Assembly: GCA_016794525.1 (NCBI GenBank)
Contig: JAEUJY010000164.1
Coordinates: 62,001 to 126,000, forward strand
Origin: Myxococcales bacterium
GTDB taxonomy: Bacteria > Myxococcota_A > Polyangia > Haliangiales > Haliangiaceae
Direction: 5' to 3'
Length of the DNA: 64,000 nucleotides
Part shown: in pieces, positions 5,930 to 20,862 of the stretch
How positions within the stretch are numbered: position 1 is the first letter of the stretch
Layout of the letters: each line of letters starts with the position of its first letter
The notes under the pieces: model-generated
Database searches by the model: none
Told to the model about the DNA's origin: nothing
The model's input: only the letters and a program-made list of their open reading frames with translations
Position numbers and translations under genes: made by a program

Positions 5930-6706
<777 letters not shown>

Positions 6707-9504: not shown

Positions 9505-9711
9505 ATGGCCCTTCAGAAGCGTCGCCGCGGTCCCGCTCGTACTGCCCAACAGCGTTCTGCCTGGATGAAGAAGTCCGGCGAGAACCGTCCCGCCGTCAAC
9601 GCGTGCCCGAACTGCTCGGCGCCGCGCATCCCGCACCGCGTGTGCATGGCGTGCGGCTTCTACGACGGCCAGCAGATCACGGCCGGCAAGCAGACCGAAG
9701 CCGGCGAGTAG
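9505..9711 (+). CDS. rpmF: Large ribosomal subunit protein bL32
   Basis: 68 residues with a basic N-terminus and four zinc-ribbon cysteines (Cys34, Cys37, Cys47, Cys50) in CPNCSAPRIPHRVCMACG. It is the expected second gene of the yceD-rpmF-plsX operon. The N-terminal MALQKRRRG differs from the common MAVPKRK start but keeps its basic character. A dispersed two-hairpin element follows 15 bases after the stop. Confidence 0.95.
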   Translation: MALQKRRRGPARTAQQRSAWMKKSGENRPAVNACPNCSAPRIPHRVCMACGFYDGQQITAGKQTEAGE

Positions 9712-9726
9712 CGTTGATTGGTTGAA

Positions 9727-9782
9727 GAGGGTCTTTCGCAAAGACCCTCCCCCACGAGACGTGGGGCCCCCACCCGAAACGC
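9727..9782 (+). repeat. Dispersed two-hairpin element, copy A
   Basis: A perfect 10-bp hairpin with a 3-base loop (9727-9749, GAGGGTCTTT / AAAGACCCTC) is followed at once by a second hairpin (9750-9766, CCCCAC / GTGGGG) and a conserved tail ending CACCCGAAACGC. It lies 15 bases after the rpmF stop and ends 28 bases before plsX, in the rpmF orientation. Three more full copies are in the window (B, C, D). Confidence 0.85.
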
Positions 9783-9810
9783 GAGACTCGGGGGGAGCAT
9801 TCTGACCAAC

Positions 9811-10836
9811 GTGACCACGCCGCTGGTGATCGCGGTCGACGCGATGGGCTCCGATGGGGCGCCCGGGCCTGACGTGGCCGGGGCGGTGGCGGCCGTGCGC
9901 GAGGCGCCGCTCGAGGTCGAGCTGTGCGGCGACGGCCCGCGGCTCGAGGCCGAGCTGGCGCGGCTGGGCGCGCGCCACGAGCGCGCGGTGCGCGTCATCC
10001 ACGCGCCCGAGGTGGTGACGATGGACGACCACCCGGCACAGGCGTTCCGCGCCAAGCGCGCCAGCTCGCTGCGGGTGGCGATCGATCGGGTGAAGTCGGG
10101 GGCCGCCGCCGCGGTGATGTCGGCGGGCAACAGCGGCGCGGTGCTGGCCCACGCGCTGTTCGTGCTGGGCCGCAGCCGCGGCGTCGAGCGGCCGGCGCTG
10201 GTGACGGTGTTCCCGACCACCGCCGGGCCGCTGACCCTGTGCGACGTCGGCGCCAACGTCGAGCCGCGGCCGAGCATGCTGGCGCAGTTCGGCGTGCTCG
10301 GCGCGGCCTACGATCGCGTGGTCCACGGCCGCAGCCGGCCGCGGGTGGGCCTCCTGGCCAACGGCACCGAGGCGGGCAAGGGCACCGAGCTGACCCGCGC
10401 CGCCGCGCCGCTGCTGGCGGCGGCCGCGGCCCGGGGCGACTTCCGCTACGTCGGCTACGTCGAGGGCTCGGGGATCTGGGACGGCGCCGTCGACGTCGTC
10501 GCCACCGACGGCTTCACCGGCAACGTCGTGCTGAAGGCGTGCGAGGGCGTCGCCACCGCGCTGTTCGGGCTGGTGCGGCAGCGGCTCACGGCCACGCCGC
10601 GGGCCAAGCTGGGCGGCGCGCTGGTGGCGCCGGCGCTGCGCGATCTCGGCCGGCGGATCGACTTCGCCGAGACCGGCGGCGCGCTCCTGGCCGGCGTCGA
10701 CGGCGTCGTGGTGATCGCCCACGGCCGCAGCGACACCACCGCGATCAAGAACGCGGTCACGCTGGCCGGGCGGTTCGCCCGCGCCGACCTGGCGACGAAG
10801 ATCGCCGCGGCGGTGCGCGCCGCGGTGGCGGCATGA
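9811..10836 (+). CDS. plsX: Phosphate acyltransferase PlsX
   Basis: 341 residues from GTG 9811, with GGGGGAG about 13 bases upstream. The longer frame runs through a repeat element and is not credible. It carries IAVDAMGSDGAP at the N-terminus, SAGNSGAVL, DVGANVEPRP and ANGTEAGKG, all typical of PlsX, which converts acyl-ACP to acyl-phosphate for phospholipid synthesis. It is third in the yceD-rpmF-plsX order. The usual next gene, fabH, is absent, and a reversed lipoprotein gene follows. Confidence 0.95.
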   Translation: MTTPLVIAVDAMGSDGAPGPDVAGAVAAVREAPLEVELCGDGPRLEAELARLGARHERAVRVIHAPEVVTMDDHPAQAFRAKRASSLRVAIDRVKSGAAAAVMSAGNSGAVLAHALFVLGRSRGVERPALVTVFPTTAGPLTLCDVGANVEPRPSMLAQFGVLGAAYDRVVHGRSRPRVGLLANGTEAGKGTELTRAAAPLLAAAAARGDFRYVGYVEGSGIWDGAVDVVATDGFTGNVVLKACEGVATALFGLVRQRLTATPRAKLGGALVAPALRDLGRRIDFAETGGALLAGVDGVVVIAHGRSDTTAIKNAVTLAGRFARADLATKIAAAVRAAVAA

Positions 10837-12234: not shown

Positions 12235-12391
12235 CGTTGCTTGGTGTCGCCCGCGCGCCCGAGCGTTCACCCGGGCCTTCGCCCCTCTGACGCGCTGCGT
12301 CCCCGGCGCGTAGCCACGGTGGCACCGCGCGGAGTTTTTCGCGCGTCGACCGGCTTCCCCCGCGACGGGGGCTGTGCAAGAAAGCCCGTCC

Positions 12392-13324
12392 ATGACCACC
12401 GCCCTCCTGTTTCCGGGCCAAGGCTCGCAGCGGGTCGGGATGGGCCGCGACCTGGCCCACCGCTTCGAGCTGGCGCGCGCCACCTACGCCGAGGCCGACG
12501 CCGCGCTCGGCTTCGCGATCTCGGCCCTGTGCTTCGACGGGCCCGAGGACGACCTCACGCTCACCCAGCACAGCCAGCCGGCGATCCTCGCGACGTCGAT
12601 GGCGGTGTTCCGGGTGCTGGTCGCCGAGAAGGGCCTGCGCTTCGACGCGGTCGCCGGCCACTCGCTCGGCGAGTGGACCGCGCTGGCCGCGGCCGGCGCG
12701 ATCGGGTTCGCCGACGCGGTCCGGCTGGTGCACCTGCGCGGCCAGTTCATGCAGGACGCGGTGCCGGTCGGCGTCGGCGCGATGGCGGCGCTGATGGGCC
12801 TCGAGCTCGGCGCGACCCGCGGCCTGTGCGCCGAGGCCAGCGCGCCCGGCGAGCCGTGCGAGCCGGCCAACCTCAACGGCGGCGGCCAGATCGTCATCTC
12901 GGGCCACGCGGCCGCGATCGATCGCGCGCTGGCGATGGCCAAGGCCAAGGGCGCGAAGCGCGCGGTCAAGCTGCAGGTCAGCGCGCCGTTCCACTGCTCG
13001 CTGATGAAGCCGGCCGCCGATCGCCTCGCGGCGGCGCTGGCCGACGTCGAGATCAAGGCGCCGGTGGTGCCGGTCTACGCCAACGTCTCGGCGGCGCCGA
13101 CCCAGGACCCCGCGGTCATCCGCCGCCAGCTGATCGAGCAGGTCACCGGCACGGTGCGCTGGGAGGAGTCGGTGCAGGCGCTGGCCGCCGCCGGCGTCAC
13201 CCGCGCGTTCGAGCTGGGCGCCGGCAGCGTGCTGCGCGGCCTGGTCAAGCGCATCGCCGACGGCATCGACTGCACCACCATCGGCGAGCCCCACGAGGTC
13301 GACGCCTTCACCGCAGGAGCGTAG
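12392..13324 (+). CDS. fabD: Malonyl-CoA:ACP transacylase
   Basis: 310 residues. LFPGQGSQ lies near the N-terminus, the nucleophile Ser91 in GHSLGEW, the malonyl-binding Arg in LRGQFMQ, the catalytic His in SAPFHCSLM and the late NVSA strand. It loads malonate onto ACP (substrate of FabF). It is the first gene of fabD-fabG-acpP-fabF and is separated from fabG by 2 bases. Confidence 0.96.
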
Positions 13325-13326
13325 CC

Positions 13327-14091
<765 letters not shown>

Positions 14092-14107
14092 GCCGCCCGC
14101 GCCGCTG

Positions 14108-14134
14108 TTGCCGGCGCTCCCCGTTCCGTACTAA
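14108..14134 (+). promoter_or_regulatory. Possible internal promoter ahead of acpP
   Basis: TTGCCG (14108-14113) and TACTAA (14129-14134) separated by 15 bases, about 25 bases before the acpP start. The spacing is short and the boxes are imperfect. An extra promoter here would fit the high expression that ACP needs. Confidence 0.28.
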
Positions 14135-14158
14135 GAGAACCCGTCGAAAGGATCCCCC

Positions 14159-14398
14159 GTGAGCGATATCGAGAAGAAGGTCAAGGAACTCATCTGCCAG
14201 CAGCTCGAGGTGTCGGAGGACAAGCTCAGCCCTGAGGCTTCGTTCATCGACGACCTGAAGGCGGACTCGCTGGCCGTGGTCGAGCTGGTGCTCGCCCTCG
14301 AGCAGGAGTTCGGCATCGAGATCCCCGAGGAGGACACCGAGCGCATCAAGACGGTCGGCGACGCGATCGGCTACATCAAGAGCCACGCGAAGGCCTGA
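14159..14398 (+). CDS. acpP: Acyl carrier protein
   Basis: 79 acidic residues from GTG, with GAAAGGA upstream. The phosphopantetheine Ser37 is in [10 protein letters not shown] and helix III follows as [12 protein letters not shown]. It is a standard fatty-acid-synthesis ACP between fabG and fabF. A strong hairpin lies 9 bases after the stop. Confidence 0.97.
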
Positions 14399-14407
14399 TT
14401 CGGCCAC

Positions 14408-14427
14408 CCGGGGCGCCCGCGCCCCGG
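14408..14427 (+). terminator. Hairpin after acpP (attenuator or transcript-end stabiliser)
   Basis: A perfect 8-bp stem (CCGGGGCG / CGCCCCGG) with loop CCCG, followed by CCCTTCGATT. It may end a share of transcripts between acpP and fabF or protect the acpP mRNA. No strong T-run follows. Confidence 0.45.
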
Positions 14428-14504
14428 CCCTTCGATTCCCCAGGCGCGCGGTCGGCCGCCGCCGAGCGCGCGCATCGCCTGTGCGTCATTCGACGGAGTT
14501 CTCC

Positions 14505-15754
<1,250 letters not shown>

Positions 15755-15755
<1 letters not shown>

Positions 15756-16204
15756 TGCGCTGGTTCGTCGGATCGGATCACGCCGGGTTCGCGCTCAAGC
15801 GCCACCTGTCCGAGTTGCTGCGCGGGCTGGGCGACGAGGTCGCCGACCTCGGCACCGACAGCGAGCAGTCGGTCGACTACCCCGACTACGGCGCGGCGGT
15901 CGGCCGGGCGGTGGCGTCGGCGCGGACCCCGACGCTCGGCCTGATCATCTGCGGCACCGGCGTCGGCATCTCGATCGCCGCCAACAAGGTGCCCGGCGTG
16001 CGCTGCGCGCTGTGCACCGAGGCGTTCACCGCCACCGCGTCGCGCGCCCACAACGACGCCAACGTCATCGCCCTCGGCGCGCGGGTCATCGGCGCCGGCG
16101 TCGCCGAGGCCTGCGTGCGGGCGTTCCGCGACACCGCCTTCGAGGGCGGGCGCCACAGCCGCCGCGTCGCCAAGCTGACCACCCTCGACGACTCGTCCCG
16201 CTGA
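15755..16204 (+). CDS. rpiB: Ribose-5-phosphate isomerase B
   Basis: 149 residues starting inside the fabF stop. [10 protein letters not shown] at the N-terminus, the catalytic Cys region [16 protein letters not shown], and [15 protein letters not shown] are diagnostic of RpiB/LacAB. It interconverts ribose-5-P and ribulose-5-P; ribulose-5-P is the riboflavin precursor used by the RibB domain at 32.6 kb. It overlaps nrdR downstream. Confidence 0.94.
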
Positions 16205-16668
16205 TGCGTTGCCCGTTCTGCGGCGCCGACGAGGACAAGGTCAACGACTCGCGTCAGTCCAAGGACGCGCGCGAGATCCGGCGCCGCCGCGAGTGCCTCA
16301 AGTGCGGGCGCCGCTTCACCACCTACGAGCGCATCGAGGAGTCGATGCCGGTGGTGATCAAGAACGACGGCCGGCGCGAGCCGTTCGATCGCCACAAGAT
16401 CGAGCGCGGCATCGGCTTCGCGGTGATCAAGCGCACCGTGCCGGCCGAGCAGGTGCGGCGGATCGCCGAGGACCTCGAGCGCGAGATCAGCGAGCTGGGC
16501 CTCGACGAGATCCCGTCGCGGGCGATCGGCGAGCGGGTGCTGCCGCGGCTCAAGGCGCTCGACCAGATCGCCTACGTGCGGTTCGCGTCGATCTACCGCG
16601 ACTTCCGCGACCTCGACGAGTTCGCGCGCGAGCTCGAGGCGATGCAGGGCGAGGACGGCAGCGAGTGA
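16204..16668 (+). CDS. nrdR: Transcriptional repressor NrdR
   Basis: 154 residues. A zinc ribbon (Cys3, Cys6, Cys31, Cys34) is followed by [17 protein letters not shown] and an ATP-cone domain with the [11 protein letters not shown] start. NrdR represses ribonucleotide reductase genes through ATP/dATP sensing. No NrdR box or nrd gene was seen here. Its position rpiB-nrdR-ribD with overlapping ends matches the common nrdR-ribD association. Confidence 0.95.
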
Positions 16669-17801
16669 CCGTCACCGACGCGGCCGACCAGCGGCACATG
16701 GCGCGCTGCCTGGCGCTGGCCGCGCGCGGCGGGCGGACCTCGCCCAACCCCCAGGTCGGCTGCGTGATCGTCTCGGCGCGCGGCGAGGTGCTGGCCAAGG
16801 GCTGGCACCGCGGGCCCGGCACCGCCCACGCCGAGGCCGACGCGCTGGCCAAGCTGGGCGGGCGCGCGCCCGGCGCGACGCTCTACGTCAACCTCGAGCC
16901 GTGCAACCACCAGGGCCGCACGCCGCCGTGCGCGCCGGCGGTGATCGCCAGCGGCGTGGCGCGGGTGGTGATCGGCGCGCTCGACCCGATCCCCGGCCAC
17001 GGCGGCGGCGCGCGGCGGATCGCCCGCGCCGGCATCGCGGTGACCGCCGGCGTGCTGGCCGACGCCTGCCGCGCCCACAACCGCGGCTTCTTCACCTGGG
17101 GCGAGCGCGGGCGGCCGTGGTTCACGCTCAAGGCGGCGGCGACGCTCGACGGGCGCATCGCCACCTCGACCGGCGAGTCGCAGTGGATCACCGGGCCGGC
17201 CGCGCGGGCCGAGGTCCACGCGCTGCGCGCGGCGCACGACGCGGTGCTGGTCGGCATCGGCACCGTGCGCGCCGACGATCCGCGGCTGACCGTGCGCGAC
17301 GCCAAGGGCCGCGATCCGATCCGGGTGATCGTCGACTCGCGGCTGCGCACGCCGGCCACCGCGGCGTGCCTGGCGCCGGGCGCCCGCACGATCATCGCCG
17401 GCCGCGCGCCGGTGGCGCTGGCGCGGGTGCGCGCGCTGACCGCCGCCGGCGCCGAGGTGTGGTCGCTGCCGGCCACGACCGACGGCCACGTCGACCTGGG
17501 CGCGCTGGCCGGGGCGCTGGCCGCGGCCGGCGTCACCAGCGTGCTGGTCGAAGGCGGCGGCGCGATCCACGCCGGGCTGATCGCCGCCGGGCTGTGCGAC
17601 GAGCTGCAGCTCCACGTCGCGCCGATCGCGCTCGGCGGCCGGCGCGGCGGTCCGGCCTGGCTGGGCGGCGCCGAGGTCGCGCGGCTGGCCGACGCGGTCC
17701 GCTTCACGCCGATCGGCTGCCGGGTCACCACCGACGGCGACACGCTGCTGACGTTCGCGTCGGCGCCCGCCCGGCGCCCGGCGCGCGGCCGCGCGTCGTA
17801 A
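16665..17801 (+). CDS. ribD: Bifunctional riboflavin deaminase/reductase RibD
   Basis: 378 residues from a GTG overlapping the nrdR stop. The N-terminal deaminase has HAEADAL and the [11 protein letters not shown] zinc motif. The C-terminal reductase has [24 protein letters not shown], and [12 protein letters not shown]. It catalyses steps two and three of riboflavin synthesis. The rest of the pathway (ribE, ribBA, ribH) is 14 kb away at 31.9-34.2 kb. Confidence 0.95.
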
Positions 17802-18983: not shown

Positions 18984-19718
18984 ATGGCGAAGCTGAACCA
19001 GATCCTGGCCATCGAGAAGGGCCTGAAGACCCGCGTGTACGCGGAGTTCACCGAACTGCACAACGCCACCCAGAAGCCGGGCCTGATGAACGGCTTCCAC
19101 AAGGCGTACCAGCCGCGCGACGAGGAGGGCGAGACCTATCCGCCCGAGTCGCAGAAGGTGCAGCACAACGCGAGCGAGGTGTTCGAGCGGGTGGCCGCCA
19201 TCCTCACCGAGCTGTTCGACATCACCGCGACCAAGGACTGGGCGAACTGCCACGCCAAGGCCGACGTGGTCATCGACGGCCGCGTCCTGCTCAAGGACGT
19301 GCCGGCGACGTACCTGCTGTTCCTCGAGAAGCAGCTCTCGGATCTGTCGACGTTCGTCGCCAAGATGGCCGAGCTCGACCCCGGCTCCGACTGGTCGGTC
19401 GATCCGTCGACCGGGCTGTTCCGCACCGAGCCGCAGGCCACCCAGCGCACCAAGAAGGTGCAGCGGCCGATCGTGCTGTACGACGCCACCGAGCACCACC
19501 CGGCGCAGACGCAGCTCATCACCGAGGACGTGATCGCCGGCCAGTGGGTCACGATCAAGCACTCGGGCGCGCTGCCGGCGCCGCGCAAGAAGCTGCTGCT
19601 CGCCCGCATCGAGCGGCTGTCGAACGCGGTGAAGTACGCCCGCGAGCAGGCCAACGCGATCGAGTCGCCCGATCAGAAGCTCGCGAAGGACGTGTTCGCG
19701 TACCTGTTCGCGCCGTGA
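18984..19718 (+). CDS. DUF7873-type conserved protein of unknown function
   Basis: 244 residues from ATG with GAGGGA upstream. The sequence [13 protein letters not shown], the motifs [23 protein letters not shown] and HPAQTQLI, and the C-terminal coiled region ([20 protein letters not shown]) match a family I remember mainly from Actinobacteria (name DUF7873 from memory). It is soluble, with no signal peptide. No function is known to me. A hexanucleotide array begins 9 bases after the stop and an unusual RNA locus follows. Confidence 0.8.
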
Positions 19719-19726
19719 GATAGGCG

Positions 19727-19876
19727 CTTCCGGTTCCGGCTCCGGCTCCGGTTCCGGCTCCGGTTCCGACTCCGGCTCCGGCTCCGGCTCCGGTTCCGAC
19801 TCCGGCACCGGCTCCGGCTCCGGCTCCGGTCCCGACTCCGGTCCCGACTCCGGCTCCGGCTCCGGCTCCGGCTCCG
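19727..19876 (+). repeat. Hexanucleotide array (GGCTCC/GGTTCC/GACTCC)
   Basis: About 25 tandem hexamers, mostly GGCTCC with GGTTCC, GACTCC and GTCCCGACTCC variants, directly after the DUF7873-type gene. Reading frames through it give only Gly-Ser, Arg-Leu-type or Pro-Glu repeats and are not genes. The same unit, on the other strand, makes the array at 54.1-54.3 kb and the E2 linker at 61.4 kb. Confidence 0.9.
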
Positions 19877-19923
19877 ATTTTCGATCCACAGGCACGAGGA
19901 GGTGCCCACCCCGTTTCTCCGTT

Positions 19924-20109
19924 GGGAGACAAGCTCAGACTCAGATTCAAGCTCAAGGAGCAGTCGACCAGGCGTGGAGGTTCGAATCCTCCCGGGAGCA
20001 CCGACGGTTCGCCGTCCGTGACGTCCCGCCCCCGTGGCGAAACTGGTAGACGCGGGTCGCACAATCGCGGCCTGTCTGGTCCGGCTGACGCAATCTGAGA
20101 CTCTCTCCC
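19924..20109 (+). ncRNA. Permuted tRNA-like RNA 1 (Leu-type D-arm)
   Basis: The 3' half precedes the 5' half. 3' half: CGACC (19965-19969), variable loop AGGCGT, T-arm GGAGG-TTCGAAT-CCTCC (19976-19992), acceptor CGGGAGC (19993-19999), A73. A 28-base linker with hairpin GACGG-TTCG-CCGTC follows. 5' half: acceptor GCCCCCG (20028-20034), D-arm TGGCGAAACTGGTAGACGCG, then GGTCG (20055-20059). GGTCG falls at positions 27-31 and pairs fully with CGACC; the acceptor pairs 6 of 7 (one C-A). T8, A14, A15/T48, G18, G19, G26, T54-A58 and C61 are in place. The flanks pair: CTCAGATT with AATCTGAG, and GGGAGA with TCTCCC. No anticodon loop with U33 can be assigned and no CCA is encoded. A decayed tRNA is the main alternative. 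Confidence 0.5.
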
Positions 20110-20141
20110 AGCCTCAACCGGCCGAGCTCGCCATCTCCATC

Positions 20142-20246
20142 GTCGTCGCCCAATGCCCAGGATGCCGGTTCGATTCCGGCAGTCGGCGCCATCTATGCCG
20201 ACTTGGACCAAAGGCAAGTCATGGGTACTAAGACCTGAGCGACGAC
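20142..20246 (+). ncRNA. Permuted tRNA-like RNA 2, CCA encoded
   Basis: 3' half: GCCCA (20155-20159), variable loop, T-arm GCCGG-TTCGATT-CCGGC (20164-20180), acceptor AGTCGGC (20181-20187), G73 and an encoded CCA. After 5 bases, the 5' half: acceptor GCCGACT (20197-20203, 7 of 7 pairs), T8, D-stem GAC/GTC around a loop with AAAGGCA, A26, and TGGGT (20222-20226), which pairs with GCCCA (one G-U). A15/T48 and the T-loop invariants are present. Beyond the anticodon stem, GTCGTCGC (20142-20149) pairs perfectly with GCGACGAC (20239-20246), so the transcript ends are held together. The anticodon loop is replaced by an asymmetric internal loop, and U33 is not evident. Confidence 0.5.
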
Positions 20247-20298
20247 AACCGCCGTTGGCGTGCGAACACGGCACCTGCGCAGGGATGCTGCGCAGTCC

Positions 20299-20338
20299 GA
20301 ACCCCGGAGTAGGCTACACTCCCGGGGTTCACTATTTT
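20299..20338 (+). terminator. Rho-independent-type terminator of the RNA locus
   Basis: A 12-bp stem with one bulged C (GAACCCCGGAGT / ACTCCCGGGGTTC), a 7-base loop, and then ACTATTTT. It is preceded by another perfect 7-bp hairpin (CTGCGCA / TGCGCAG, about 20275-20295). It lies about 50 bases past the second tRNA-like RNA and before the convergent damaged gene. Confidence 0.6.
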
Positions 20339-20361
20339 CGGCGCCGCCGCGGGCGCTGGGG

Positions 20362-20862
20362 TCAGCCCCAGTGCCGCGCGAAGTGCTCGACGAGGATCGC
20401 ATCGTCGACGCCGCTGGGCAGCCAGCCGGCCGGGAACGCCGTCCCGCGCTCGATGGCCAGCGCGACCCGCGCCGCGCGCGCTCCCCAGCCCGGGGCCGCA
20501 GCGACGGCGAGCGACCATCGCGCGGCCACGACCTGGCACGCCCACGCGCTGCCGGCGACGAGCGCGTCAGGCGTCGGCCAGCCGCCAGGCAGCGACTCGT
20601 GCAGCAGGCGCACCAGCAGGTCGCGCGCCGCCGCGTCGCCGTCGCCCGCGCGCAGCGCTTCGGTCAGCAGCTGGCGCTCGAGGTGGAACGAGGTCACCTC
20701 GGCGAGCCCGAGGGTGGCGGCCATCGTGTCGAGCGAGGTCGTCGGCCGCATCGCCAGGAACTCGCCGACCGAGCGGTAGCCGAGCGCCTCGAGCCGGGCG
20801 GTGATGCGCTCGCCGAACAGCGTCTCGACGGCCGCCGCGAGGGTGTGGTTCGGCGACGTCCC
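20362..20862 (-). pseudogene. Orphan C-terminal coding segment fused out of frame to an S41 peptidase
   Basis: About 167 codons with helical, protein-like composition (RITARLEALGYRSVGEFLAM and later helices, ending FARHWG), in a different frame from the S41 gene upstream. It has no credible start codon of its own. The frames join at GCGGGACG (20857-20864); one added base would make a single protein reading LIAG then TSPNHT. It is not like the usual S41 C-terminus, so it is either the decayed remainder of another gene joined by deletion or the product of a frameshift (mutation or sequencing error). Confidence 0.5.

What the first reader, a model, noticed from the sequence alone, without database searches (positions are those of the whole stretch)
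20154..20227. tRNA-like RNA 2: adjacent second permuted cloverleaf with encoded CCA
Seen: T-arm GCCGG-TTCGATT-CCGGC, acceptor AGTCGGC, G73, CCA, then only 5 bases before GCCGACT, its perfect 7-bp partner. Downstream come a D-stem GAC/GTC around a canonical-looking loop with GG, A26, and TGGGT pairing with GCCCA upstream of the T-arm. A15-T48 and the T-loop invariants again fit. Two neighbouring loci with the same unusual order make chance much less likely. A plain hairpin at the tRNA end (AGTCGGC/GCCGACT) is a competing reading, but does not explain the D-arm and anticodon-stem matches.
Basis: partly seen in the sequence, partly recalled or inferred. Interest (0 to 1): 0.8.

Follow-up and report, generated by a model that had tools for sequence, protein, structure and literature searches.

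The report
Widespread RNA mimicking two tRNAs
The sequence is one half of a previously unlisted ~410-base bacterial and phage RNA that folds into two tRNA look-alikes with their halves in swapped order, and it nearly always lies next to the gene of one uncharacterised protein (DUF7873), so it probably acts as a tRNA-mimicking scaffold or decoy rather than as a working tRNA.

Summary
In detail: every base and pair named is present at 20155-20226. It is not chance. But it is not a permuted tRNA gene. Two more covarying helices continue the anticodon stem, leaving no anticodon loop. 'RNA 1' and 'RNA 2' are domains of one ~410-nt RNA (19924-20338) beside a DUF7873 gene (18984-19718). DUF7873 with this RNA recurs in Myxococcota, Planctomycetota, Acidobacteriota, Chloroflexota, Armatimonadota, Actinomycetota and phages: a model of module 2 finds a full-length match in 78 of 94 DUF7873 loci tested. 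U8 is invariant and the Levitt pair 15-48 covaries, so real tRNA tertiary folds are mimicked. Closest known is YrlA, the tRNA-mimicking Y RNA of Ro60: same circular permutation, but one module, closed acceptor loop, Ro60 partner. Rfam has no family for this RNA. Function is inferred, not shown: a Y-RNA-like tRNA-mimic RNP.

The parts
18984..19718 (+). DUF7873 protein gene (PF25283, 244 aa, ATG start at 18984), partner of the RNA
   Evidence: Pfam E 5e-102; RNA found beside it in most homologous loci
19924..20338 (+). whole conserved noncoding RNA, GGGAGACA... to terminator-like hairpin and T-run (ends inferred)
   Evidence: conserved block in 12 Kofleriaceae genomes
19924..19929 (+). GGGAGA, 5' strand of the helix closing module 1 (pairs with TCTCCC 20104-20109 region)
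   Evidence: consensus fold; bases read
19976..20000 (+). module 1: T-arm GGAGG-TTCGAAT-CCTCC, acceptor 3' strand CGGGAGC, A73
   Evidence: scanner, sequence
20028..20059 (+). module 1: acceptor 5' strand GCCCCCG (6 of 7 paired, one C-A), U8, D-arm GCG-AAACTGGTAGA-CGC, GGTCG stem strand
20121..20272 (+). module 2 complete (tRNA-mimic core plus three extension helices)
   Evidence: 40 pairs, 97.7% of cells paired, 23 pairs changed on both sides
20126..20133 (+). extension helix, 5' strand (pairs with 20256-20263)
   Evidence: 6 of 8 pairs with changes on both sides
20142..20149 (+). GTCGTCGC, helix that replaces the anticodon loop (pairs with GCGACGAC 20239-20246)
   Evidence: 6 of 8 pairs with changes on both sides
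20155..20159 (+). GCCCA, 'anticodon' stem 3' strand (pairs with TGGGT 20222-20226)
   Evidence: 95% of cells paired
20164..20180 (+). T-arm of module 2
   Evidence: 100% of cells paired
20181..20191 (+). acceptor 3' strand AGTCGGC, G73, CCA
   Evidence: acceptor pairs 100% kept, 5 of 7 with changes on both sides; CCA kept in 11 of 12 Kofleriaceae genomes
20197..20203 (+). acceptor 5' strand GCCGACT
20206..20220 (+). D-arm GAC-CAAAGGCAA-GTC
   Evidence: U8 76/76, Levitt 15-48 73/76 over wider family
20299..20338 (+). conserved hairpin and T-run, likely intrinsic terminator
   Evidence: alignment and folds; did not pass the consensus scan

Best explanation
Shown: the locus is a two-part cassette, a DUF7873 protein gene and a ~410-nt noncoding RNA with two circularly permuted tRNA-mimic modules (order: anticodon-stem 3' strand, T-arm, acceptor 3' strand, loop, acceptor 5' strand, D-arm, anticodon-stem 5' strand), each prolonged by further helices where a tRNA has its anticodon loop. 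Inferred: the RNA is made with or beside the DUF7873 mRNA, RNase P (and RNase Z or trimming) opens one or both acceptor loops so that tRNA-like ends with a discriminator base and CCA appear, DUF7873 binds the RNA, and the RNP shows its mimic modules to enzymes that handle tRNA (RNase P, TruB/Dus-type modification enzymes, PNPase, synthetases or tRNA nucleases) in order to recruit, specialise or sequester them, as YrlA does with Ro60 and PNPase.
For: Covariation in 12 genomes; over 90 model matches from several phyla and phages all 40 pairs show changes on both sides, 94.9% of cells paired against 56% shuffled (alignment fitted to the model). U8 76/76 in both modules; Levitt pair 15-48 kept in 73/76, shuffled mean 45 for module 2, 0/2000. 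Linkage: 141 of 160 DUF7873 loci have at least one module just downstream, 77 have two; 78 of 94 DUF7873 loci have a full-length module-2 match, none of 6 loci without DUF7873 do. Module identities differ: A73 in 63/76 first modules, U or G73 in 73/76 second modules; CCA at 74-76 in 24/76 and 28/76 against about 1.6% by chance. YrlA beside Ro60 has the same permuted core and Rfam's YrlA model gives sub-threshold hits on both modules of an Actinospica DUF7873 RNA (35.0 and 30.9 bits). The cassette lies in or beside phage tRNA arrays and DUF7873 co-occurs with Ro60 among 282 phylum genomes (8 of 15 against 22 of 282; Fisher p 1.7e-6).
Against: No transcript, processing or binding data. DUF7873 has no PDB sequence or fold match, its predicted pI is 6.4, and RNA binding is unproven. 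CCA is not encoded in most copies. Ro60 is absent from 7 of 15 DUF7873 genomes and from all +/-6-kb neighbourhoods, so the Y-RNA mechanism may not carry over. Co-occurrence was not corrected for phylogeny or genome size.
Confidence: 0.6

Rival explanations
1. Decoy against tRNA-directed weapons: tRNA bodies without an anticodon loop occupy, but cannot be cut by, anticodon nucleases or other tRNA-targeting enzymes in phage-host conflict; DUF7873 assists or delivers it.
For: Found in phages inside or beside tRNA arrays and patchily in bacteria (15 of 282 phylum genomes); no anticodon loop; a competitive-inhibitor role was proposed for YrlA (PMC7790460).
Against: No defence gene recurs in the neighbourhood (which missed about half of the known DUF7873 copies and so has limited power); no functional data.
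Confidence: 0.25
2. Genuine circularly permuted tRNA genes whose halves are joined to give decoding tRNAs, as in red algae and Thermofilum.
For: Order of halves, full acceptor, T, D and anticodon stems, encoded CCA.
Against: The anticodon loop is replaced by a covarying 8-bp helix and a second one; no constant anticodon, and the second base after the stem (position 33 in a tRNA) is C, not U, in all 12 genomes; the bulge-helix-bulge splicing enzymes are not known in bacteria (general knowledge).
Confidence: 0.03
3. A cis-acting 3' UTR element of the DUF7873 mRNA (autoregulation through tRNA-processing enzymes), with no separate RNA function.
For: Mostly 50-400 nt downstream on the same strand.
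Against: In L106 the twin module lies upstream on the opposite strand.
Confidence: 0.1
4. A variant bacterial Y RNA that works with Ro60 in trans.
For: Co-occurrence with Ro60; shared permuted core.
Against: 7 of 15 DUF7873 genomes lack TROVE; the window's genome has its own YrlA-like hit in the tRNA array that holds Ro60; no YrlA hit on the window RNA.
Confidence: 0.12

Closest known systems
YrlA / bacterial Y RNA (Rfam RF02553; Ro60/Rsr partner; PDB 6CU1)
   Same: Circularly permuted tRNA mimic (PMC11472068) with T, D and acceptor arms; opposite end continues as a long stem; found in bacteria and phages; Rfam YrlA gives weak hits on some DUF7873 RNAs.
   Different: YrlA has one module; in the Ro60 loci read here the acceptor stem is closed by about 4-6 nt (GAAA, CTCG, TTCTGT) without CCA; partner Ro60; shorter (90-150 nt, PMC8394870). 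Here: two modules with distinct N73, longer loops often with CCA, partner DUF7873, about 410 nt, no YrlA hit on the window RNA.
Circularly permuted tRNA genes (Cyanidioschyzon, Thermofilum)
   Same: 3' half before 5' half, CCA between them.
   Different: Those are joined and processed into decoding tRNAs with an anticodon; here helices replace the anticodon loop.
Permuted (two-piece) tmRNA
   Same: Permuted tRNA-like domain in a longer RNA, acceptor loop that could be opened by processing.
   Different: Full D-stem, two modules, no Rfam tmRNA match at the locus; the genome has an ordinary one-piece tmRNA.
GOLLD / ROOL large structured RNAs of phages
   Same: Large noncoding RNAs often near phage tRNA genes (from memory).
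   Different: No Rfam match to any such family.

Membership tests
YrlA / bacterial Y RNA | Rfam YrlA covariance model match | tested here: not met
   No YrlA hit at E<=10 on 19850-20420, while YrlA beside Ro60 in relatives scores E 1e-14 to 1e-9; weak sub-threshold hits on some distant DUF7873 RNAs
YrlA / bacterial Y RNA | circularly permuted tRNA-mimic module | tested here: met
YrlA / bacterial Y RNA | encoded near Ro60 | tested here: not met
   Ro60 on another contig of the same genome, none found within 6 kb in the fetched DUF7873 loci
YrlA / bacterial Y RNA | binds Ro60 and tethers PNPase | not testable with these tools
   needs biochemistry
permuted tRNA gene | anticodon loop restored when halves are joined | tested here: not met
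   covarying helices extend the anticodon stem
permuted tRNA gene | 3' half before 5' half with pairing acceptor strands | tested here: met
permuted tRNA gene | joined, aminoacylated product | not testable with these tools
   needs RNA data
permuted tmRNA | tmRNA covariance model match / missing one-piece tmRNA | tested here: not met
   no tmRNA hit at the locus; ordinary tmRNA elsewhere, E 1.4e-66
DUF7873-associated twin tRNA-mimic RNA (proposed here) | two permuted modules beside a DUF7873 gene | tested here: met

The most novel reading that the evidence does not exclude
A new, widespread RNP class in which one RNA, cut open at both acceptor loops into base-paired pieces, carries two different tRNA-like ends (A73 in one, U/G73 in the other), possibly chargeable by two different synthetases and held by DUF7873, and is used by phages and bacteria to control tRNA enzymes.
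Probability: 0.25. Interest if true: 0.92.

Novelty: new variant of a known kind. Interest (0 to 1): 0.8.

Why it matters
A ~410-nt RNA with two tRNA mimics, present in several bacterial phyla and in named phages, has no Rfam family and a partner protein of unknown function and no known fold match. It shows that circularly permuted tRNA mimicry is not confined to Ro60 Y RNAs, gives DUF7873 a testable role, and offers a system for asking what tRNA mimics do in phages and bacteria. The two modules' different discriminator bases make it directly testable whether they are opened, CCA-tailed and charged.

Tried and rejected
Ordinary tRNA/tmRNA or known Rfam family: ARAGORN and Rfam negative at the locus, tmRNA elsewhere. 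Plain hairpin: rejected by covariation of the other arms. Permuted decoding tRNA: no anticodon loop. Simple Y RNA: Rfam YrlA model works on Ro60 loci but not on the window RNA. A conserved third gene near DUF7873: none found among 58 loci, but that clustering was weak. Fold of DUF7873: confident model (mean pLDDT 90.8), no useful match in PDB or viral models. Literature: no paper in the open library holds DUF7873 or PF25283, and other searches found no such RNA; the key Y RNA papers are not held, and preprints were not searchable. A first automatic split into module 1 and 2 was wrong and was replaced by order along the RNA. Consensus promoter/terminator scan found nothing.

Full report
What is there. 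A scanner written for this anatomy (5-bp T-arm with TTCRANY-type loop, seven acceptor bases that pair with a stretch 3-110 nt downstream, D-arm with GG, anticodon stem) finds exactly two places in the 64-kb window, at 19976 and 20164, and none in 20 shuffled windows. ARAGORN and Rfam at gathering scores are silent in the window.

Conservation. The locus is found in all six same-genus relatives and several genera of the same family; record titles place them in Kofleriaceae, Myxococcota. In an alignment made on sequence alone, module 2 (20121-20272) has 40 pairs in seven helices: 97.7% of cells form standard pairs (83.6% after shuffling), 23 pairs have changes on both sides (12.1 shuffled, 0/500), and slid controls fall to 29-38%. 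The acceptor stem is paired in every genome although its sequence changes (AGTCGGC/GCCGACT, AGCTGGC/GCCAGCT, AGCGAGC/GCTCGCT, AGAAATC/GATTTCT and others). The D-stem (one pair changed on both sides) and the GCCCA/TGGGT stem (three pairs) covary too.

Not a decoding tRNA. Where a tRNA has its anticodon loop, the 5-bp stem leads through an internal loop into two further 8-bp covarying helices and a 4-bp closing helix. Modules 1 and 2 are parts of one conserved block, 19924 to about 20338, ending in a hairpin and T-run. The genome has an ordinary tmRNA elsewhere.

The partner. Upstream lies a DUF7873 gene (PF25283, E 5e-102). DUF7873 occurs in 15 of 282 genomes of the phylum sample, in over 550 matching stretches of GTDB genomes including Streptomyces, Nannocystis, Herpetosiphon, Ktedonobacter, Planctomycetota and Acidobacteriota, in 336 IMG/VR stretches and in 73 GenBank phage records. 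Of 160 such loci, 141 have at least one permuted module and 77 have two just downstream, with few elsewhere in the loci. A covariance model of the Kofleriaceae module 2 finds full-length matches in 78 of 94 DUF7873 loci and in none of six other loci (my count of the table). In L106 the RNA lies divergently upstream. In the class-wide genome search, five strong matches outside the window's genus (L267-L271) were checked for DUF7873 and all five have it.

Tertiary mimicry. In 76 loci with two well-spaced modules, U8 is T in 76/76 of both modules. The Levitt pair 15-48 is A-U or G-C in 73/76 of both; for module 2 the shuffled mean is 45 and no shuffle of 2000 reaches it. U8 and the 15-48 pair were not scanner criteria; acceptor pairing and an A near position 14 were, so those are not independent. 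N73 is A in 63/76 first modules and U or G in 73/76 second modules; 12 second modules combine U1-A72 with G73. CCA follows in 24/76 and 28/76. Many of these loci are related (for instance Streptomyces), so the counts are not independent events.

Relation to Y RNA. The same scanner finds permuted modules beside Ro60/TROVE genes in other myxobacteria and in phages, and Rfam calls those in L080-L083 YrlA over the full model. Their acceptor stems are closed by short loops without CCA. Rfam's YrlA gives nothing at E<=10 on the window RNA but weak hits on both modules of an Actinospica copy and one of a Streptomyces copy. Conversely the module-2 model hits YrlA loci only in the tRNA core (model positions 37-102). 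The tRNA core is therefore of the YrlA kind (shared ancestry or convergence is open), the rest is different. YrlA as a circular permutation of tRNA is established (PMC11472068; PMC8394870). Ro60 is on another contig of this genome, inside a tRNA array with its own YrlA-like hit. Over the phylum sample DUF7873 and TROVE co-occur (8 of 15; p 1.7e-6), but 7 DUF7873 genomes lack TROVE, and no Ro60 was found by tblastn in the +/-6-kb DUF7873 loci.

How it may work. By analogy with YrlA and from the anatomy I favour a tRNA-mimic scaffold or decoy RNP with DUF7873. The association with phage tRNA arrays fits a role in tRNA biology during infection. Steps inferred only: transcription, opening of the acceptor loops by RNase P, DUF7873 binding, and the identity of the recruited enzymes.

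Limits. No expression data; single-sequence folding of the window does not give the cloverleaf; E-values from the short-calibrated model are rough; A8 is fitted to the model; the literature library lacks the main Y RNA papers and preprints, so an earlier description of this RNA cannot be excluded.

Noticed in passing
L045 3243-11037 (G000 contig C7): 27-tRNA array (ARAGORN) with the Ro60/TROVE gene in its middle; several tRNA-Leu are only 75-78 nt, and a YrlA-like hit (30.5 bits) lies at 6396-6520 minus strand.
   Followed up: partly
L045 about 9700-9940, minus strand: Three similar ~65-nt hairpins just upstream of Ro60 that may be further Y RNAs.
   Followed up: partly
L061, L062, L063: A divergent second DUF7873 paralogue (about 30-33% identical) with a tRNA gene a few hundred bases downstream.
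   Followed up: no
L253 (Arthrobacter phage Mimi), L254 (Gordonia phage Phendrix): DUF7873 (as hypothetical protein) and the unannotated twin RNA lie in or beside phage tRNA arrays; a PcfJ-like protein is encoded inside the Mimi array.
   Followed up: partly
window 19730-19880: GGCTCC/GGTTCC hexamer repeat between DUF7873 and the RNA; relatives read here have a shorter gap without it.
   Followed up: no
window 12241-17801: Ordinary neighbourhood by translation: FabG-like reductase, beta-ketoacyl synthase, RpiB- and NrdR-like ORFs, RibD-type deaminase/reductase (only some tested against Pfam).
   Followed up: partly
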